From: Cytophagales bacterium | GTDB lineage: Bacteria > Bacteroidota > Bacteroidia > Cytophagales > VRUD01 | DNA length: 54,624 bases | Direction: 5' to 3' | NCBI GenBank assembly: GCA_019456305.1 | Contig: VRUD01000021.1 | Coordinates: 1 to 54,624 of the forward strand | Part shown: positions 30,201 to 40,790 of the stretch, in pieces | Position numbering within the stretch: the first letter of the stretch is position 1 | Layout: every line of letters starts with the position of its first letter | Position numbers and translations under genes: made by a program | The notes under the pieces: model-generated | The model's input: the letters and a program-made list of their open reading frames with translations, nothing else | What the model was told of the DNA's origin: nothing | Database searches by the model: none

Positions 30201-30381
30201 AGCAGAAAAAACCTTTGTGGATGGCATTTGCTACTTTGACATGGAGCAAGACAAGCGATTGCGGGATGAAATAAAAAAGGAAAGAATGCGGCTGATCCAG
30301 AAAATGCTGGAGAAGAAGAAAGGGGAGAATATGCAGGAGGCGAAGAAGAAGAGAGAGGATATCTATCGGTGTGGAGATTAG
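27295..30381 (+). CDS. Exported double amidohydrolase-family protein
   Basis: A 1028-residue protein with a signal peptide and two amidohydrolase modules. Module 1 (about 25-440) lacks the metal-binding HxH where it is expected (SFLDIYTGYG) and is probably structural. Module 2 (about 580-1010) has the metal motif DEHSHIAIY, the later CHSYR histidine, FTHILEG, and the terminal LNPAKLLHLDNNMGSIKAGKDADLVIW. An imidazolonepropionase- or prolidase-like hydrolytic role at the envelope is likely; the substrate is unknown. Repeat-like DNA lies in frame at residues about 254-267 (GAKLAPPLQVL, from GGGGCAAGCTTGCCCC-type DNA) and about 549-580 (HTPAPSQEG). The related gene at 46049 may encode a functional partner. 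Confidence 0.9.
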   Translation: MKKILLSIIVTYLVHFNLISQETFPLNGVKDKRPEIYAFTNATIFVDYQTVLKNATLIIKDGIVESVGAKITIPKGYIVTDLKGKYIYPSFLDIYTGYGIPQLKKRKRSRNSKPQFLSNKKGAYHWNQAIKPEINAKDLFAADTGKAKQFRNLGFGAALTLQKDGVVRGSSVLVTLADANENDVMILDMAAAHYSFDKGSSTQNYPGSLMGTIALLRQTWLDARWYKQRSKSNAEYNISLEAFNNLQSLPQIFDIGAKLAPPLQVLRANKIGDEFGVQYIMVGSGLEYQRINDIKATRASFIIPLNFPLAYKVEDPLDATKITLSEMKHWELAPANPSKLAEHQIQFAITTAGLKNKKDFWKNLRKAIEYGLDEKVALKALTYTPAKLLRVDDQLGSLKKGKIANFLITASNIFDKENIIYQNWVQGKKYEINDIELTDIRGTYDLTINEKPPLKLKITGKLQKPELNIHINDTTKIKINFSRSKDQITLYFDVGRNGIPADIKQIKNGDSKGNIRLSGWIEGDILSGKGQLPDGSWIKWDARQTESFKEEHTPAPSQEGNKKDTIAGQGANDREPGAVIYPFTAYGWEKKPKQETVLFKNATVWTNERDGILENTDVLIQNGKISKIGRSLTPQNARVIDATGKHLTSGIIDEHSHIAIYKGVNEGTQAVSAEVRIGDVINSEDVNIYRQLAGGVTAVQLLHGSANPIGGQSALIKLRWGALPSAMKIKDADGFIKFALGENVKQSNWGNNRKSRFPQTRMGVEQVYFDAFTRAKEYKQATKKYNSLSGKEKARTMPPRKDLELEALSEILDSKRFITCHSYRQSEINMLMKVADSMGFRVNTFTHILEGYKVADKMKAHGAGASTFSDWWAYKYEVIEAVPYNGALMHQVGIVTAYNSDDAEMGRRLNQEAAKAVKYGGLSEEEAWKFVTLNPAKLLHLDNNMGSIKAGKDADLVIWSDNPLSIYAKAEKTFVDGICYFDMEQDKRLRDEIKKERMRLIQKMLEKKKGENMQEAKKKREDIYRCGD

Positions 30382-30452
30382 TACTTAGTTGCAAAAGTAA
30401 TAGTTATTATGACACAACAAAGCATAATAACCCTTATTTATGCAACTAAGTA
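30382..30452. terminator. Strong hairpin behind the amidohydrolase gene
   Basis: Starts right after the stop codon. Outer arms TACTTAGTTGCA (30382-30393) and TGCAACTAAGTA (30441-30452) pair perfectly over 12 bp; inner arms GTTATTATG (30403-30411) and CATAATAAC (30423-30431) pair over 9 bp. The right half is a 32-bp repeat also found at 2519-2550, so this is also a dispersed element. Confidence 0.65.
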
Positions 30453-30539
30453 TTAGTCCTTACCAGTTGTGCCACTACTCCAACACTGCAAAACCTGCAG
30501 AATGGGGCACGACTTACATTTATGCTTTTAAAATCCAAA

Positions 30540-31108: not shown

Positions 31109-32515
31109 ATGGAAATACTACATAAAATAGTACCAAACGCTGAAATCGATATTCCTATGTCAACTCGATACTTTGACAAGTTGGAATTTTATGAAAAGGA
31201 AAAAGGCAAGTGGTATCTGAAAAGTTTTGACAGTGAGGAGAAAGAAAAGCTGGTTCTTAATGAAGAAACCGGAAAGAAAGCCCCGGAAGAAATTGTGAGG
31301 CAGTTATTTCTATATGAACTAATCCAAAAATACGGCTATCCCAAAGAAAGAATTAAGATTGAGCAAAAGGTGGTAATGGGTCGGGACGAGAAGAAAAGAG
31401 CCGACATTGTAGTATATCAAAATGATAATGCTACACCTTGGATAATTTCAGAAGTTAAAGCACCGCATCAAAAAAATAATATCCAGCAACTTAAAGGATA
31501 CTTAAATGCCGAAGGCTCGCCTATTGGAGCAGGATATAACGGAAAGAACCTTAGTATTTATGCACGTCCTTATCCTAAAGAGTTTGATGTTTTGAGGGAT
31601 TTACCTTTTGAGCATGAATATCAAACTGCAAAAGATGATGATAACCTCATCCGGAAAATCAAGGAATTAATATCAGACAGAAAATGGACTTTAGATGAAC
31701 TAAACAAGATTAACAAGGAAAAGCACTTTGACCTGAAAGCCATCATTGAAGAATTAGAAGAACTGGTATTGGCAAATTCAGGAGCCGACAGTTTTGACGA
31801 AATATTCAAACTGATTTACACCAAACTTTATGACGAGTTTGAAGCAGAAAATAGGGAAAATCAAACTCTATCTTTTCGGGATTACTCCAATCCTAAAATT
31901 ACCCACGACCGAATTTCACAACTCTTTGAAGAATCCAAAGACCAATGGAAAGACATTTTTGAAGTATCAGACCGCATCAAACTAACGCCTGAACATCTTG
32001 AAATCTGCATTGGCAAACTAACAGAAGTAAAGCTCTATGGAGCCAATCTCAGAATTATTGATGAAGCATTTGAGTATTTAGTACCTGAAGTATCCAAAAG
32101 CAAGAAAGGTCAATATTTCACTCCGAGAATTGTAATTGACACCTGTGTTAAAATGCTCAATCCTACAAGAAAAGAATACATTTTAGACCCTGCTTGTGGA
32201 AGTGCCGGATTTTTAGTACACGCAATGGAATATATCTGGGACAAATATAAAATGGAGTCCTATAAAGTAAAAGCCAATTACGCAAACAAATACTTGTGGG
32301 GTGTTGACTTTGAAGAAAAAGCCACCAAAATAAGCAAAGCGTTGATGTTGATTGCGGGTGACGGCAAAACACACATTTACAAGCAAAACACTTTGGAATA
32401 TTCCAAATGGAGCGAAAGTTTTAAAGTTGATTTGAAAAGAGAAGCCCTATTAGATAATGAAAACCCAAAAAACCTGACTTTTGATATTATTATGAGTAAT
32501 CCTCCTTTTGCCTGA
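31109..32515 (+). CDS. hsdM: Restriction-modification methylase, N-terminal part (split by TGA)
   Basis: Residues about 40-175 form a nuclease-like domain of the HSDR_N_2 type with the PD-(D/E)xK pattern Asp99 (RADIVVY), Glu115 and Lys117 (SEVKAP). After a helical region comes the N6-adenine methylase core: LDPACGSAGFLVHAM (motif I) and MSNPPFA (motif IV). The frame stops right after NPPFA with TGA at 32513-32515, where relatives usually have Gly or Trp. The same frame goes on without a break to 33340. A nuclease domain fused to the methylase plus a separate specificity gene, and no hsdR, suggest a BcgI-like (type IIB/IIG) design instead of classic type I. As sequenced the gene is interrupted: a pseudogene, a real mutation or a base error. 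Confidence 0.88.
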   Translation: MEILHKIVPNAEIDIPMSTRYFDKLEFYEKEKGKWYLKSFDSEEKEKLVLNEETGKKAPEEIVRQLFLYELIQKYGYPKERIKIEQKVVMGRDEKKRADIVVYQNDNATPWIISEVKAPHQKNNIQQLKGYLNAEGSPIGAGYNGKNLSIYARPYPKEFDVLRDLPFEHEYQTAKDDDNLIRKIKELISDRKWTLDELNKINKEKHFDLKAIIEELEELVLANSGADSFDEIFKLIYTKLYDEFEAENRENQTLSFRDYSNPKITHDRISQLFEESKDQWKDIFEVSDRIKLTPEHLEICIGKLTEVKLYGANLRIIDEAFEYLVPEVSKSKKGQYFTPRIVIDTCVKMLNPTRKEYILDPACGSAGFLVHAMEYIWDKYKMESYKVKANYANKYLWGVDFEEKATKISKALMLIAGDGKTHIYKQNTLEYSKWSESFKVDLKREALLDNENPKNLTFDIIMSNPPFA

Positions 32516-33340
32516 GATATTAAGGAAAAGGCAATAATCAATCAATACTTTGACCTGTTAGGATTACGGTACACTTTCAATATGGAAACAGGGAACATTA
32601 AATCAGTTCTGAAAAGTTTTGCTGAAGAATTTGACCTGGAATTCAAAAATGATGCAGAAAACATTATAAAAGATAAGATAAAAGAAATCAATCAGGATGG
32701 GGACATTGATTTGGAAAATAACGAAGATGTAAACAATGCCATTCAGGAAATTGCCTCATTGATGATACAAGTGGTTGACAGAGGAGACGTAAAAGAAAAC
32801 TTACTAATACCAAGATTAAAAGTAGTAATCCGCTACAAAAAGAATGAAAGCAAATGGAATAAAGTTGATAGGCACATTCTTTTTATTCAGCGAATTATAG
32901 AAATGCTCAAAGAAGGCGGAAGAGCTGTAATTGTATTACCACAGGGCATTTTCAACAATTCCAATGAAAAATATGTTCGCAAATTCATAACAGAAAAAGC
33001 CAGAATTTTGGGAGTTGTTGGCTTGCATGGTAATAGTTTCAAACCCCATACTGGAACCAAAACCAGCTTGCTGTTTCTTAGAAAATTCACACAGGAAGAA
33101 ATACGAAAAGCACAAAATCATACTGACTATCCCATCTTTTTTGCTGTTTCAAAAATAAGTTTTAAAGATAATTCAGGTATTTATCTCTACGCAAAGGATG
33201 AAGAAGGAAACAAGCTGCTGGATGACGATGGAAACCCAATTTATCAAACCGATTTGTACCATATAGCAGATGCGTTCAAAGATTGGGGTTTAAAGCAATT
33301 GGACAGAGGAGACCAAATGTATGAGTATTTGAAAAATTAA
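32516..33340 (+). CDS. hsdM: Restriction-modification methylase, C-terminal part
   Basis: Direct in-frame continuation of the methylase after the TGA. If translated on its own, the first ATG is at 32582, giving 252 residues; the 22 codons between the stop and that ATG also read as methylase. It holds the rest of the N6-adenine methylase fold: RHILFIQRIIEMLKEGGRAVIVLPQGIFNN, then GVVGLHGNSFKPHTGTKTSLLFL. It could only restore activity if it assembles with the N-terminal fragment or if the stop is an artefact. It is followed at 2 bp by the specificity gene. Confidence 0.85.
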   Translation, partial: DIKEKAIINQYFDLLGLRYTFNMETGNIKSVLKSFAEEFDLEFKNDAENIIKDKIKEINQDGDIDLENNEDVNNAIQEIASLMIQVVDRGDVKENLLIPRLKVVIRYKKNESKWNKVDRHILFIQRIIEMLKEGGRAVIVLPQGIFNNSNEKYVRKFITEKARILGVVGLHGNSFKPHTGTKTSLLFLRKFTQEEIRKAQNHTDYPIFFAVSKISFKDNSGIYLYAKDEEGNKLLDDDGNPIYQTDLYHIADAFKDWGLKQLDRGDQMYEYLKN

Positions 33341-35117: not shown

Positions 35118-35207
35118 GGAATAACATACACCGAGAATAAGATTGACAATTTGGTGTATGGACTTTAGGGGTTGAGCAAAGAGGAAATTGAAATTGTAGT
35201 ATGGAGC
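35118..35207 (+). pseudogene. Fossil C-terminal end of a restriction enzyme/methylase
   Basis: One frame reads ITYTENKIDNLVYGL, stop (TAG 35166-35168), GLSKEEIEIV. This matches the typical closing motif IDxLVYxLYGLxEEEIxIVE of Eco57I-like restriction-methylation enzymes with Tyr changed to a stop. No other part of that gene remains. The arms CATACACC and GGTGTATG inside it also pair as an inverted repeat. The ATG of the next gene overlaps its end. Confidence 0.55.
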
Positions 35208-36226
35208 TAATGGATATAAAAGGAATCATATCAAAAAAAGTGTCATTTCAACCAAATGCTTGGAGTTCCATTGAAAAAGAAATCAGTATTGAGGAAGTCA
35301 TTAAGGATACTAAAAGGGGGAGATATGCTGAAGAAGTAAATAAACTTAGATGGTATCTGCATAACGATGAAAAAGATAAATACGACATTCACAAAAAGAG
35401 ACTTCCGGGTGTTACGTTTTGTGCTAATTTCAATGGTAACAGAAAAAAGGAATTAATCAGGACTTATCATAACCTTGTTGTACTTGATATTGACAAATTA
35501 GAGAATAAAGAATTAAGGAGAGTAAAAAACTTGCTTGAAAATGATAAGTATGCTTTTACATTTTGGGTATCTCCTTCGGAATACGGCATAAAAGGGTTGA
35601 TATATTTAGAATACAAGTTTGAAATTAAAAAATACGGAATAGACCTTGCCCACAGACACGCCTTTGAGCAAATAACGGAGTATTTTAAAGATAAATATTC
35701 AATTGACCTTGACACAAGCGGCAGTGATACCACACGACTGTGTTTTTTATCTTATGACTCTGATTTATTGTTTAAGACCTCAATTATTCCCTTTCCTATT
35801 GTTGAACCCAATGAAGATACTTCACCATTATTCAATCAACCAAGTGAACCTAAAAAAAAGGTAACAAAAATACGGTATAGTAGCTCAAAAGATGTACTGA
35901 ATAACCCCAAGGGAAAAAACAATCAAAGGGACAGAAGAACCCTTGTCAATATTATCAAGTTTCTGAAAAAGGAGAACATATCAATAACCAGCACTTATGA
36001 GAACTGGTATCGTGTAGCATACGCAATTGCAAATTCATTCACTCATGATATAGGCGAAAAATACTTTTTGAGTTTATGTGAATTAGATGGAGTAAATCAT
36101 GATGAAAACCAAAGTAAAAACATGCTGTTATACTGTTATCAAAATAGTAATGGCAATATAAAATTTAAAACAATAGTGTTTTTGGCAACAATTAAGGGAT
36201 ATAAAATTAAGGGGAATAGTACCTAA
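35201..36226 (+). CDS. BT4734-like / PriCT_2 primase-type protein
   Basis: A 341-residue protein with an N-terminal BT4734/VirE_N-like domain (about 15-205: LPGVTFCANFNGNRKKE, NLVVLDIDKLENKELR, YAFTFWVSPSEYGIKGLIYLE, DLDTSGSDTTRLCFLSYD), related to archaeo-eukaryotic-type primases of Bacteroidota mobile elements. A PriCT_2-like helical domain follows (about 240-335: TYENWYRVAYAIANSF, GEKYFLSLCELDG, KFKTIVFLATIKGYK). Such proteins usually lie in mobile or integrated elements. Here it stands 160 bp ahead of a reverse transcriptase, the same orientation, no integrase. The acidic DID and the DTSGSDTTR segment are candidates for active-site residues. Start at 35201 or 35210. Confidence 0.85.
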   Translation: MELMDIKGIISKKVSFQPNAWSSIEKEISIEEVIKDTKRGRYAEEVNKLRWYLHNDEKDKYDIHKKRLPGVTFCANFNGNRKKELIRTYHNLVVLDIDKLENKELRRVKNLLENDKYAFTFWVSPSEYGIKGLIYLEYKFEIKKYGIDLAHRHAFEQITEYFKDKYSIDLDTSGSDTTRLCFLSYDSDLLFKTSIIPFPIVEPNEDTSPLFNQPSEPKKKVTKIRYSSSKDVLNNPKGKNNQRDRRTLVNIIKFLKKENISITSTYENWYRVAYAIANSFTHDIGEKYFLSLCELDGVNHDENQSKNMLLYCYQNSNGNIKFKTIVFLATIKGYKIKGNST

Positions 36227-36385
36227 ACGGCATCATGCAAGTATTTTGCGTGTTTGGTCGTTAAATTTCGACTGCCACAAAGTTCACTTTGGCCAAGTGG
36301 GTAGTATGGAAAAAGGCTATGACTTTGTCAGTATTATGGTTAAACCAATACAGGTACTCCCTTCCCCTTTTTTACTTTCAAAGGT
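36227..36385 (+). ncRNA. Hairpin-rich candidate RNA upstream of the reverse transcriptase
   Basis: Three hairpins follow one another: CATGCAA/TTGCGTG with a 5-nt loop (36234-36252); CAAAG-TTCA-CTTTG (36278-36291) within CCAC/GTGG outer arms; and TGGTT-A-AACCA with bulged outer GTAT/ATAC arms (36331-36351). No reading frame fits the gap. The position between primase and reverse transcriptase is where template RNAs of several defence reverse transcriptases lie. This is a prediction from structure only. Confidence 0.35.
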
Positions 36386-38140
36386 ATGTTTGATAAATAC
36401 TTTACAGATGGCAAGATAATTTATTACCTGTGCAAAATAAGGGCGAAGTATGCTAAACAAAGAAATAAGCAACACCTCCTACACTTGTTGTCAGAAGACT
36501 CGAAATTAAATCATCATCTCAATAAAAATAATGAAGAAATATTCCTTCGGAAAATATTGCCATCCCGAAGAAAATGGAACAAGCTCGGCAAAGAATATAG
36601 ATATAAGAATAAATCGCAAAAAATTAACTCGATTGAATACAATGAAAAGTGCATATTCAAAACTATAAAGCACTACCAAAAAACGAACCCGGGAGAGCCA
36701 TTTTTAATTGAACTGAATAAATTTATCTCTGAAATAAGAGATTCGGTAAATGACCCTGATTATCAAATAAAAACACCAAGAATATATCCCAGGTTAAAAG
36801 AAAAGAAAGGAGCTAATAAAAACGCTTGTCGCCCGATTTCACTTTTTGATTTAAAAGACAAAATCATTATTAGCCAGACAAACAAATATTTGACGGAAAT
36901 ATTTGATGCCGAGTTTTACAAATACTCTCATGCTTTCAGAGCACCAATTAAAAACCCAGGTAAGAAAAAGGAACTAATTACGCATCATAATTCCATTGAC
37001 GCAATACTGAAATATAAATCACAATACAAAGGGAAACGGTTATGGGTAGCAGAATGCGATATGAAAAAATTTTATGACTCGGTAAATCATTCCGTAATTA
37101 AAAAACAATTTAATAAGTTGGTATCTCGGGTAAACCGGAAAAACAGTCAGCCTATTGATACAAGGGCGATAAAAGTTTTTAAAAAATATTTGGAAACGTA
37201 CAATTTTGTCAAAGATGTCATTCCTAAAAATAAGGATGATGAATATTGGAAAAGTCACAAACTATCAAAGGAACATAGCTTTGGTTGGGTGGAAAGTGAT
37301 TTCCTAAAGCTTGGATACTATAAAAGAATTAAAAATACCAAAATAGGAATCCCACAGGGTGGGGCACTTTCAGGATTAATTGCAAACCTCGTATTAGATT
37401 ATGCAGATAATAAAGTAACAAAGGAAGCAGACAATCGGCTCTTATATATTCGTTTTTGCGATGATATGATTGTTATGAATCCAAGCAAGAAAGCATGTAA
37501 AGAAGCTGTTTATCGTTACGAAAGTGTCTTGAAGGAACTGAAGTTAGTACCACACCAGTTTAAAAATGGTTTAAAAAATAAGCCAGGTTCATTTTGGCAT
37601 AAAAGCACCAAGTCCAAAGAGCCTTATAAATGGACAGCAGCATACAGAAATGATGAGAACTTTCCTTGGATAGGTTTTGTAGGGTACGAAGTCCATTATA
37701 GCGGCCACGTCAGGATTAGAAAAAGTTCCATGAGAAAAGAATTACAAAAACAAAAGGAAGTTGTATATAAGATTAATAGCGCCATTAGAGATGATAACAA
37801 AAGAGTTCGGAATGGAACGGTGTTAGAATCGGCCATAAATAGATTAACAGGAATGTCAATAGGCAGAGTACAGATGTGGAACCATAAAAAGATAGAACAT
37901 GAAATGTGCTGGGTAAACGGTTTCCAAAAGCTAAATAATAATCCATTTTTAAAAAGACAATTGAAACAACTTGATAAAAACAGAAATCATCAAATGGCGT
38001 TATTGAAGAAATCTGTTGCTGAACATATAGATGAGGATTTTGAAGAAGAAGTACCGAGACCTCAAAGAAAACTCGTTTATTATGGCAAGCCTTATAGTTA
38101 TTACTATCACGTAGTTGAAAAGAAAAACACCTTGTCTTAG
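36386..38140 (+). CDS. Reverse transcriptase (non-LTR bacterial type)
   Basis: A 584-residue RNA-directed DNA polymerase. Readable motifs: RPISLFDLKDKIII (RT1), YSHAFRAP (RT2), the first catalytic Asp225 in AECDMKKFYDS (RT3), IGIPQGGALSGLIANLVLDY (RT4) and Asp359-Asp360 in RFCDDMIV (RT5), then WIGFVGYEVHYSGHVRI (RT6/7). The N-terminal ~115 residues are basic and helical, and the C-terminal ~130 residues carry a long Lys/Arg-rich helix region like a thumb or RNA-binding part. It lacks the HNH endonuclease and maturase tail of group II introns, is not next to a variable repeat as in diversity-generating elements, and has no retron msr/msd that I can recognise. Preceded by the primase gene. A defence-associated or orphan RT is likely. 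Confidence 0.92.
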   Translation: MFDKYFTDGKIIYYLCKIRAKYAKQRNKQHLLHLLSEDSKLNHHLNKNNEEIFLRKILPSRRKWNKLGKEYRYKNKSQKINSIEYNEKCIFKTIKHYQKTNPGEPFLIELNKFISEIRDSVNDPDYQIKTPRIYPRLKEKKGANKNACRPISLFDLKDKIIISQTNKYLTEIFDAEFYKYSHAFRAPIKNPGKKKELITHHNSIDAILKYKSQYKGKRLWVAECDMKKFYDSVNHSVIKKQFNKLVSRVNRKNSQPIDTRAIKVFKKYLETYNFVKDVIPKNKDDEYWKSHKLSKEHSFGWVESDFLKLGYYKRIKNTKIGIPQGGALSGLIANLVLDYADNKVTKEADNRLLYIRFCDDMIVMNPSKKACKEAVYRYESVLKELKLVPHQFKNGLKNKPGSFWHKSTKSKEPYKWTAAYRNDENFPWIGFVGYEVHYSGHVRIRKSSMRKELQKQKEVVYKINSAIRDDNKRVRNGTVLESAINRLTGMSIGRVQMWNHKKIEHEMCWVNGFQKLNNNPFLKRQLKQLDKNRNHQMALLKKSVAEHIDEDFEEEVPRPQRKLVYYGKPYSYYYHVVEKKNTLS

Positions 38141-38240
38141 TTGGGCATCAGAAACTTAAAGGAAGGTATTGTAATGAAATATCGGAATAGCAAAGCAACA
38201 ACTCCTTGTATAAGCTTAAACAGGAAAAGCCAACCGCAGT

Positions 38241-38786
38241 TTTGCACATTGCCATCCTCGTACCTGCGGTGGCAAAGAGCAAAACCCCTCCGCATGACTT
38301 TTCGGTAGATAGAAACAGTAGTAGAAAATCAAATAAAAATCTCCCCTCCCTTGCTTTTTTAATTTTTTCTTAAACAAACATTCTGTTCGACAGACAAATA
38401 AGCATTTCCGTTTAACAGAAACATTTGTCTCCGATAGAGACAGGCGGGCTACAGTAGGTAACTGTCTATATGCCATTGCGGTTAACGAGAATATTCGTAC
38501 TTTAGTGCTTTCAATAAGCGGTTGGTTTCGGGGTCGGGGATGTTGTTCTTAATCCGCAACGTATCATAGCCGCAAACCGTTAGTTTCAATCGAGAAAAGC
38601 AAACACTTTATTAAGCTTGAAAGCATCAGATTTATTCATTAAAGCGTTAGAAAACGAAGGTGTGGAATACATCTTCGGAATTCCGGGAGAAGAGAATCTT
38701 GATTTTTTGGATTCGTTGAAAGATTCCAAAATTAAATTTATACTCACCCGGCACGAACAAGGGGCCGGGTTTATGGCTGCAACTTA
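38241..38786. repeat. 546-bp direct repeat, left copy
   Basis: Aligns without gaps to 40245-40790 (offset exactly 2004). I count five differences in the first ~60 bases and none in the rest. It comprises a long palindromic element (attC-like arms about 38470-38590) and the 5' end of the acetolactate-synthase-like gene. Frames inside it (for instance 38216-38476, minus) are repeat-derived and not called as genes. Confidence 0.92.
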
Positions 38787-38793: not shown

Positions 38794-40203
38794 ATGACCC
38801 CCGAAAAACTCAAAGAAATAATACAACAGGGCGAAGGCATTGAAGTAGAGTTTAAAACCTCGCGGTCTCAACTTAGCGAAAATGCCTTTGAATCCGTTTG
38901 CGCCTTTCTGAACAGGCAGGGCGGTCATTTGATTTTGGGAGTGAAGAATGACGGAACGGCTCAGGGAGTGGATGATGGGCGGGTGCAGGATGTTATCAAC
39001 AGCATCGTTACCAATGCCAACAACCCGCAAAAGCTGAACCCTACCTTTTACCTGTCTCCGCAAGTGATGGATTTTGAGGGTAAGAAGGTAATTTATCTGT
39101 ATGTACCCGCAAACTCACAGGTACACAGCACCGCAGGAAGAATATTTGACCGCAACGAAGATGGCGACTTTGACATTACCAATAAGCCGGAACAAGTAAC
39201 GCAACTTTACCTGCGAAAGCAAAACTCCTATTCCGAAAACAAGGTATTCCCCTACGTTGAGCTATCCGATTTTAAGCAGGAGCTATTTACCCGTGTACGT
39301 GCATTGGCGAGAAGCGAAAATACGGAACACGCTTGGCTTGAAATGAGCGATGAGGAAATACTCCGCTCTGCGAATTTATACCAAAAAGACCCGATAACCA
39401 GCAAGGAGGGCTATACATTGGCTGCGGTGCTGTTATTGGGCAACGACCAAACCATTATAGCTGCCCTGCCCCACCATAAAACCGATGCCATTCTCAGGGT
39501 GGAAAACCTTGACCGATATGACGACAGGGACGACATACGCACCAACCTTATTGAGAGCTATGACCGTTTAATGGCTTTCATCAAAAAGCATCTGCAGGAT
39601 AAATTTTATCAGGAAGGGGTACAGCGCATCAGCATACGGGATAGGATTTTCCGTGAAGTGGTTAGTAATCTCTTAATCCACAGGGAATTTACCAACGCTT
39701 TTCCCGCCAAACTCATTATCGAGAAAGACAGGGTACTAACTGAAAACTGGAATCGTCCTCACGGTGCAGGGGCGATTGACCCTGCCAACTTTTCGCCATT
39801 TCCCAAAAATCCGAATATTGCCAAGTTCTTCAAGGAAATAGGCAGGGTGGATGAATTGGGGTCGGGAATACGCAATACCTTCAAATACTGTGGCATCTAC
39901 ACTGCCGGAACAAAACCGGAATTTATCGAAGGTGATGTATTTAAAACGATTATTCCTTTAAAGGCGGAAAAAGCTACTACCCAAAAGACTACCCAAAAGA
40001 CTACCCAAATAACTACCCAAAACACACCGGAAAGGATTATTGAGTTGCTTACAGAGAATCCTGCTTTAAGTAGAAAAGAATTAGCTGATATTCTGGGAGA
40101 TATTACAGAGGATGGCGTAAAATACCATCTTGAAAAGCTAAAAGAAGAAGGTAAAATAGAACGGATTGGCAGGACAAGGGGATATTGGAAAGTAATGCAG
40201 TAA
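38794..40203 (+). CDS. AlbA_2 (Schlafen-like) ATP-binding protein
   Basis: A 469-residue protein with an N-terminal AlbA_2 domain (about 10-130: EGIEVEFKTSRSQLSE, SVCAFLNRQGGHLILGVKND), a helical middle, a HATPase_c_4-like part (about 285-370: REVVSNLLIHREFTNAFPAKLII, GRVDELGSGIRN) and a C-terminal winged helix (about 415-469: NPALSRKELADILGDITEDGVKYHLEKLKEEG). The family is annotated as RecG-like or transcriptional regulators; several members are linked with stress and defence. A Thr-Gln-Lys run (ATTQKTTQKTTQITTQ, about 390-405) joins the last two parts. It is enclosed by two 546-bp direct repeats, so it looks like inserted cargo. Confidence 0.9.
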   Translation: MTPEKLKEIIQQGEGIEVEFKTSRSQLSENAFESVCAFLNRQGGHLILGVKNDGTAQGVDDGRVQDVINSIVTNANNPQKLNPTFYLSPQVMDFEGKKVIYLYVPANSQVHSTAGRIFDRNEDGDFDITNKPEQVTQLYLRKQNSYSENKVFPYVELSDFKQELFTRVRALARSENTEHAWLEMSDEEILRSANLYQKDPITSKEGYTLAAVLLLGNDQTIIAALPHHKTDAILRVENLDRYDDRDDIRTNLIESYDRLMAFIKKHLQDKFYQEGVQRISIRDRIFREVVSNLLIHREFTNAFPAKLIIEKDRVLTENWNRPHGAGAIDPANFSPFPKNPNIAKFFKEIGRVDELGSGIRNTFKYCGIYTAGTKPEFIEGDVFKTIIPLKAEKATTQKTTQKTTQITTQNTPERIIELLTENPALSRKELADILGDITEDGVKYHLEKLKEEGKIERIGRTRGYWKVMQ

Positions 40204-40244
40204 GCTAAAAAACACATCAGGCATTATCGTAATATCCCCGTTGC

Positions 40245-40790
40245 TTTGCACATTGCCCCCCTCGTTCCTGCGGTGGCAAAGAGCAAAACCCCTCCACACG
40301 ACTTTTCGGTAGATAGAAACAGTAGTAGAAAATCAAATAAAAATCTCCCCTCCCTTGCTTTTTTAATTTTTTCTTAAACAAACATTCTGTTCGACAGACA
40401 AATAAGCATTTCCGTTTAACAGAAACATTTGTCTCCGATAGAGACAGGCGGGCTACAGTAGGTAACTGTCTATATGCCATTGCGGTTAACGAGAATATTC
40501 GTACTTTAGTGCTTTCAATAAGCGGTTGGTTTCGGGGTCGGGGATGTTGTTCTTAATCCGCAACGTATCATAGCCGCAAACCGTTAGTTTCAATCGAGAA
40601 AAGCAAACACTTTATTAAGCTTGAAAGCATCAGATTTATTCATTAAAGCGTTAGAAAACGAAGGTGTGGAATACATCTTCGGAATTCCGGGAGAAGAGAA
40701 TCTTGATTTTTTGGATTCGTTGAAAGATTCCAAAATTAAATTTATACTCACCCGGCACGAACAAGGGGCCGGGTTTATGGCTGCAACTTA
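40245..40790. repeat. 546-bp direct repeat, right copy
   Basis: Right-hand copy of 38241-38786. It includes the likely upstream region and first 56 codons of the intact acetolactate-synthase-like gene, which continues beyond the repeat. Confidence 0.92.

What the first reader, a model, noticed from the sequence alone, without database searches (positions are those of the whole stretch)
35201..38140. Primase plus hairpin RNA plus reverse transcriptase: candidate undescribed system
A BT4734/PriCT_2-type primase gene, a 159-bp gap with three consecutive hairpins and a stand-alone reverse transcriptase (Asp225, Asp359-360; GIPQGGALSG) lie in one direction inside a defence island. No integrase, group II intron parts, msr/msd or template/variable repeat pair is seen. 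Known defence reverse transcriptases such as DRT2 and DRT9 use an adjacent structured RNA as template, and some other RT systems include primase-type domains. A separate primase with an RNA and this RT would be a new combination or an uncharacterised branch.
Basis: partly seen in the sequence, partly recalled or inferred. Interest (0 to 1): 0.8.

Follow-up and report, generated by a model that had tools for sequence, protein, structure and literature searches.

The report
Reverse transcriptase, folded RNA and primase
This is an uncharacterised member of a bacterial antiviral family in which a reverse transcriptase probably copies a short stretch of a neighbouring folded RNA into DNA with a primase-polymerase as partner; the protein pair was already catalogued, but the conserved RNA appears to be newly found here.

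Summary
The reverse transcriptase (36386-38140) is a full-length UG39 enzyme (PADLOC RT_UG39, 652 bits) and the primase matches PADLOC's RTasVirE-PriCT2 (406 bits), so the protein pair is catalogued. What seems new is the RNA. A long-range stem shows it runs 36209-36369, overlapping the primase's last codons and closing round the gap. In a subclade of 19 relatives, 18 of 32 pairs keep pairing through changes on both sides (0/500 shuffles). The window's RNA folds better than all 200 shuffles. Primase and RT are neighbours in 69 of 81 related loci and co-evolve (Mantel r 0.925). The RT model's best Foldseek match is DRT9, an RT that copies an adjacent RNA; by VIA Z, DGR and group II RTs tie with it. 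The RT has a conserved C-terminal SYY-like tail where DRT9 and DRT10 prime DNA. The primase keeps its catalytic residues and an AEP fold. A primase-less branch has perfect 5-nt tandem repeats in the same RNA loop (ATTCG; TACCC), like a DRT10/telomerase template; in the window the template is unresolved. Most likely an RNA-templated defence RT with a PrimPol partner; function untested.

The parts
35201..36226 (+). AEP-type primase-polymerase (VirE_N/BT4734-like + weak PriCT_2), PADLOC RTasVirE-PriCT2
   Evidence: AlphaFold model matches AEP PrimPols (AsfvPrimPol Z 9.6; S-2L PrimPol Z 8.7, rmsd 3.9); D96, D98, K131, H151, D171, D176, R179, D186 conserved at 0.96-1.00
35486..35494 (+). codons of the primase DxD motif (Asp96 to Asp98)
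   Evidence: 0.99 conserved in 67 relatives
36209..36369 (+). structured noncoding RNA (extent inferred from the closing stem); its 5' arm overlaps the primase C-terminal codons and stop
36209..36224 (+). 5' arm of closing stem P1 (36209-36216 and 36218-36224)
   Evidence: 15 of 15 pairs with 36362-36369 and 36352-36358; closing stem recurs in relatives
36226..36262 (+). stem-loop P2 (36226-36231 with 36257-36262; tip 36234-36240 with 36246-36252)
   Evidence: L034 has a different sequence that still pairs 6 of 6
36266..36311 (+). stem-loop P3 (36266-36269 with about 36308-36311; 36271-36276 with 36300-36305)
   Evidence: one C-G to T-A compensatory change in L034
36313..36335 (+). loop between P3 and P4, candidate template region (inferred)
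   Evidence: same place as the repeat-rich loop of relatives
36326..36334 (+). TGTCAGTAT, conserved loop motif of primase-containing UG39 loci
   Evidence: exact in 24 of 69 primase loci, 0 of 11 primase-less loci, none in control stretches
36336..36348 (+). hairpin P4
   Evidence: the equivalent helix covaries in A4
36352..36369 (+). 3' arm of closing stem P1 (36352-36358 and 36362-36369)
36386..38140 (+). UG39 reverse transcriptase, 584 aa
   Evidence: RT_UG39 652 bits over the full length; AlphaFold pLDDT 90.9, best Foldseek match DRT9
37058..37060 (+). codon of RT catalytic Asp225
   Evidence: 100% conserved in 77 relatives
37460..37465 (+). codons of RT catalytic Asp359-Asp360
   Evidence: 100% conserved in 77 relatives
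38096..38101 (+). codons of Ser571-Tyr572 in the conserved C-terminal tail, candidate protein-priming residues (inferred)
   Evidence: S 0.91 and Y 0.88 conserved; DRT9 primes from C-terminal tyrosines (PMC12483538), DRT10 from a C-terminal serine (PMC12632851)

Best explanation
A UG39 defence-associated reverse transcriptase system of three parts. The RT binds the folded RNA encoded just upstream of it. It uses a short unpaired loop between stem-loops P3 and P4 as template, probably repeatedly, starting from a hydroxyl residue in its own C-terminal tail. The product is short-templated, probably repetitive DNA. The AEP primase-polymerase next door most likely acts on that DNA by starting or making the second strand. 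Infection would trigger or release the product and stop phage growth. Shown here: gene pairing, RNA structure and its covariation, RT class, intact active sites. Inferred: templating, repeat synthesis, priming residue, role of the primase, defence.
For: UG39 and RTasVirE-PriCT2 matches. Primase beside the RT in 69 of 81 loci, same strand or divergent, with matched divergence, Mantel r 0.925, 0 of 999 permutations. RNA: closing stem beats all six of its own shuffles in 61 of 80 loci; 18 of 32 pairs changed on both sides, 0 of 500 shuffles, and collapse when the register is slid; window fold z -3.37. RT model best in Foldseek to DRT9, DRT2 also high; DRT9 has the longest alignment among the leading solved RTs, 435 residues. 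Conserved SYY-like tail, as in DRT9 and DRT10. Template-like repeats in the loop of relatives: ATTCGATTCGATTC in the primase-less branch, TACCCTACCCTACC in a cyanobacterial relative, GTATCAGTATCAGTATCA in L060, TGACTTTGACTTTG in L034. Patchy occurrence in about 1-2% of sampled genomes, as expected of a defence gene.
Against: Across 42 divergent representatives the excess of loop repeats is modest (10 loci with repeats of 6 nt or more, 5.0 expected, p 0.02) and the summed repeat length is not above shuffles (p 0.41). The window itself has only a 4-nt repeat (TATG). Several close relatives break the TGTCA repeat. The C-terminal Ser and Tyr are each replaced in a few members. The RNA model built on a sister subclade scores the window only 12 bits (E 0.074), though as the best place in 10 kb. 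By VIA Z the RT is as close to DGR and group II RTs as to DRT9. No expression, binding or phage data exist.
Confidence: 0.65

Rival explanations
1. The RNA is a cis-acting leader that controls translation or transcription of the RT gene, and the RT works without an RNA template, as class 1 DRTs do.
For: The closing stem ends a short distance before the RT start in nearly all relatives, where a regulatory leader would sit.
Against: A multibranched closed RNA with a conserved unpaired motif and, in some branches, internal repeats resembles DRT2, DRT9 and DRT10 RNAs; the best PADLOC defence RTs after UG39 are the ncRNA-using Drt9, Drt2 and UG17.
Confidence: 0.13
2. The primase starts the first strand: it lays a primer on the RNA or on a DNA end, and the RT extends it.
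For: Tight co-evolution and conserved AEP active site; RT-primase fusions exist (DRT7/UG10, PMC13213688; CART-CAPP, PMC8211822).
Against: The primase-less branch keeps the same RT, an RNA and the C-terminal tail, so the RT there manages without it.
Confidence: 0.2
3. The pair is the replication or mobility module of an integrated element and not a defence system.
For: VirE_N proteins are common in mobile elements (PMC8211822); the nearby island carries large direct repeats.
Against: No second copy in the genome; one plasmid record and no phage record hold a relative; neighbours in several loci are restriction or ATPase genes.
Confidence: 0.07

Closest known systems
UG39 / RTasVirE-PriCT2 (PADLOC-DB 2.0)
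   Same: RT and primase both match over their full length (652 and 406 bits).
   Different: PADLOC lists proteins only; no RNA, template or mechanism was found described in the held literature.
UG28b of the myRT classification (PMC8934634)
   Same: RTs with VirE_N neighbours in 46% of cases; probably the same group, not tested.
   Different: Only co-occurrence was reported.
DRT9 (UG28)
   Same: Best Foldseek match and longest structural alignment; RT plus adjacent ncRNA; hydroxyl residues in a C-terminal tail.
   Different: DRT9 has a poly-U template; here the loop is TGTCAGTAT-like, and there is a primase.
DRT10 (UG17)
   Same: ncRNA with the template downstream of a stem-loop; its A-B-A' repeats resemble those in the primase-less and some other UG39 RNAs.
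   Different: DRT10 has a SLATT partner, with the RNA upstream of it; RT_UG17 scores 66 bits here against 652 for UG39.
DRT3
   Same: A second polymerase accompanies the ncRNA-templated RT and makes the other strand, a model for the primase's role (PMC13213688).
   Different: In DRT3 both enzymes are RTs; here the second is an AEP primase-polymerase.
DRT7 (UG10) RT-primase fusion
   Same: RT and primase-polymerase in one system.
   Different: DRT7 is one fused protein, described as protein-templated (PMC13213688); here the genes are separate, sometimes divergent, with an RNA.

Membership tests
UG39 RT group | full-length match to RT_UG39, far above any other RT group | tested here: met
   652 bits, residues 2-580 of 584; next best 80 bits
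UG39 RT group | partner primase RTasVirE-PriCT2 | tested here: met
   406 bits, residues 12-337
ncRNA-templated (class 2) DRT | conserved structured RNA next to the RT | tested here: met
ncRNA-templated (class 2) DRT | RNA serves as template | tested here: inconclusive
   repeats in the loop of some relatives, modest excess overall, unresolved in the window
ncRNA-templated (class 2) DRT | RT binds the RNA and gives phage defence | not testable with these tools
   needs RIP-seq and plaque assays
DRT10 (UG17) | RT belongs to UG17 | tested here: not met
   66 bits against 652 for UG39
DRT10 (UG17) | A-B-A' repeat in the template loop | tested here: inconclusive
DRT9 (UG28) | universally conserved poly-U template | tested here: not met
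   loop 36313-36335 has no poly-U tract
DRT7 (UG10) | RT and primase fused in one protein | tested here: not met
   two ORFs 159 nt apart
Group II intron | intron RNA and maturase RT | tested here: not met
   TIGR04416 97 bits against cut-off 300; no intron RNA in Rfam scan
Diversity-generating retroelement | template/variable repeat pair | tested here: not met
   no second copy of the RNA in the genome assembly
CRISPR-associated PrimPol (CAPP_B) | match to the PrimPol_Db model above its cut-off | tested here: not met
   67.9 bits against 200
AEP primase-polymerase | AEP fold and DxD motif | tested here: met
   Z 8.7-9.6 to PrimPols; DxD 0.99 conserved; enzyme activity not testable

The most novel reading that the evidence does not exclude
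UG39 systems are telomerase-like: the RT copies a short A-B-A' template in the RNA over and over, and a dedicated AEP primase-polymerase turns the repeat strand into double-stranded repeat DNA. That would be a bacterial immune counterpart of telomerase working with a primase-polymerase. A sister branch without primase would make (AATCG)n or (GGGTA)n DNA alone.
Probability: 0.3. Interest if true: 0.88.

Novelty: new variant of a known kind. Interest (0 to 1): 0.68.

Why it matters
UG39 is one of the uncharacterised defence RT groups. This work adds an RNA component with boundaries, structure and a candidate template, and shows that the primase is a constant partner in most branches and absent from one. 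That makes a direct comparison possible: the same RT with and without a primase-polymerase. If the repeat template is confirmed, it would extend the recent link between bacterial immunity and telomerase to a system with its own second-strand enzyme.

Tried and rejected
Group II intron, DGR and retron readings: rejected by RT group, no intron RNA and no second copy of the RNA. Viral origin: only weak RT-core hits in viral contigs, no phage record, one plasmid record. A family-wide claim that every UG39 RNA carries an A-B-A' template: not supported, p 0.02 for long repeats only and 0.41 for the sum. A single RNA model for all branches: R1 finds its own subclade and a few others but not the divergent or primase-less ones. 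RNAalifold on the window's own subclade supports mainly the closing stem, because the inner stems are too diverged to align. A pseudoknot between the loop of the second stem-loop and the A-rich stretch after it was seen by eye in some relatives and not tested. Promoter and terminator scans found nothing above shuffles. More primase-less relatives were sought in about 780 genomes: only one further, truncated copy.

Full report
Observation. The three parts are present as described: primase 35201-36226, gap 36227-36385, RT 36386-38140. The RT is UG39 (PADLOC RT_UG39, 652 bits over residues 2-580; the next RT model has 80 bits) and the primase is PADLOC's RTasVirE-PriCT2 (406 bits). So the protein pair is not new. 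The myRT paper also reported that 46% of its UG28b RTs have VirE_N neighbours (PMC8934634). I found no description of a UG39 mechanism or RNA in the held papers; the UG/Abi survey itself (looked up) and most preprints are not held, so this is not proof of novelty.

Relatives. A profile of five UG39 RTs brought 80 loci from the genome collection, nearly all Bacteroidota with scattered Spirochaetota, Pseudomonadota, Ignavibacteriota, Balneolota, Planctomycetota, Kiritimatiellota and Cyanobacteriota members. Nine of them, taken across the tree, were scanned and all match RT_UG39 best, at about 500-630 bits. The primase lies directly beside the RT in 69 of 81 loci counted with the window: upstream on the same strand in 52 (median gap 135.5 nt) and divergent in 17 (median 199 nt). 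Twelve lack it or cannot be judged at a contig end; seven of these (L081, L082, L086, L087, L093, L094, L095) form one branch. Where both exist they have diverged in step (65 loci, Mantel r 0.925, 0 of 999 permutations). UG39 is rare: strong matches in about 1-2% of sampled genomes.

The RNA. Looking for long-range pairing upstream of the RT showed a closing stem in most loci, for example 24 pairs in L037, 18 in L040, 17 in L065 and L052; 61 of 80 loci score above all six of their own dinucleotide shuffles. In the window it is 36209-36216 with 36362-36369 and 36218-36224 with 36352-36358, 15 of 15 pairs. A 1 x 3 internal loop between the two halves is penalised by the simple scorer, so the window alone did not beat its shuffles in that test. 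The 5' arm lies in the primase's last codons, so the RNA is about 36209-36369 and not just the gap. The window RNA folds to -51.6 kcal/mol, z -3.37, none of 200 shuffles as stable. The nearest relative L034 keeps the closing stem, P2 and P3 with different letters (P1 GGGGAA/TTCCCC to [17 protein letters not shown]2 AACGGC/GTCGTT to AATGTT/AACATT; P3 ACTGCC/GGTAGT to ATTGCC/GGTAAT). In the best-sampled subclade (19 RNAs) four helices have 85.5% of cells paired and 18 of 32 pairs with changes on both sides; no shuffle of 500 reached any of the five measures, and sliding the register drops the covariation score from 0.325 to 0.138 or less. Related sequences can inflate the shuffle test, but the slid registers keep relatedness. 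A covariance model of that subclade finds the window's RNA as its best place in 10 kb, but weakly (12 bits, E 0.074).

The loop. Between P3 and P4 lies a stretch outside the conserved helices (window 36313-36335). Primase-containing loci share TGTCAGTAT there (24 of 69 exact, none in control stretches of the RT gene); the primase-less loci do not, and 7 of 11 have ATTCGATTCGATT within one mismatch. In DRT10 the template has an A-B-A' repeat that lets the DNA slip back and be extended again, as in telomerase (PMC12632851). Similar repeats occur in UG39 loops: ATTCGATTCGATTC or a close variant in the primase-less branch, TACCCTACCCTACC in cyanobacterial L101 (another sequence, same 5-nt period and 14-nt length), GTATCAGTATCAGTATCA in L060, GTATCACATCAGTATCA in L111, TGACTTTGACTTTG in L034. 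Repeat coverage peaks two- to threefold over shuffles there in the lightly thinned set. After thinning to 42 representatives the excess is modest (10 loci with repeats of 6 nt or more, 5.0 expected, p 0.02; summed length p 0.41). So the repeat reading is strong for some branches and unproven for the family; in the window the only candidate is a 4-nt TATG repeat.

The proteins. Asp225, Asp359 and Asp360 are invariant in 77 RTs, and the last conserved feature is a C-terminal tail with an SYY-like motif (Ser571 0.91, Tyr572 0.88; a few members have A or F). DRT9 primes from C-terminal tyrosines (PMC12483538) and DRT10 from a C-terminal serine (PMC12632851). The RT model (pLDDT 90.9) matches DRT9 best by Foldseek. 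VIA ranks a DGR RT (Z 22.3, 316 residues), a group II RT (21.8, 357) and DRT9 (21.5, 435) as ties, with DRT9 covering most. The primase model (pLDDT 85.8) has an AEP fold (Z 9.6 AsfvPrimPol, 8.7 S-2L PrimPol, 5.7 CAPP) and keeps its DxD and other polar residues, so it is probably active.

Mechanism. The best reading is an RNA-templated defence RT with a primase-polymerase partner. Since the primase-less branch keeps the RNA and the tail, the RT probably starts DNA synthesis by itself; the primase then most likely makes the second strand, as the second RT does in DRT3 (PMC13213688). Shown: partnership, RNA, class, intact sites. Inferred: templating, repeats, priming residue, primase role, defence.

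Verdict. A new variant of a known kind: an uncharacterised DRT group whose RNA component is, as far as the held literature tells, identified here for the first time.

Noticed in passing
window 31109-33340: The type I methylase gene is split by an in-frame stop at 32513-32515, right after its NPPF motif; both halves match N6_Mtase, so it looks like a broken gene or a sequencing error.
   Followed up: partly
window 38234-38533 and 40238-40537: A 300-nt direct repeat at 97% identity flanks the Schlafen/AlbA_2 gene (38794-40203); a fragment of the start of the 40621 TPP-enzyme gene is also present near 38616-38700, as if the AlbA_2 gene arrived with a duplication of this border.
   Followed up: partly
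window 30376-30458: A 36-nt inverted repeat with an 11-nt spacer (MITE-like) lies at the left edge of the island.
   Followed up: no
L101 5042-5584: A gene that looks like a REP-associated transposase precedes the cyanobacterial UG39 RT whose RNA has the TACCC repeat (recognised by eye only).
   Followed up: no
L087 6038-7798, L094 6019-7773: Both primase-less UG39 loci have an ATPase-like gene (Walker motif, by eye) directly upstream and an unknown 343-aa gene directly downstream of the RT.
   Followed up: no
L042, L043, L044, L046, L047, upstream of the RT: In this subclade the primase reading frame runs further towards the RT, so that about the 5' half of the RNA is also protein-coding.
   Followed up: partly
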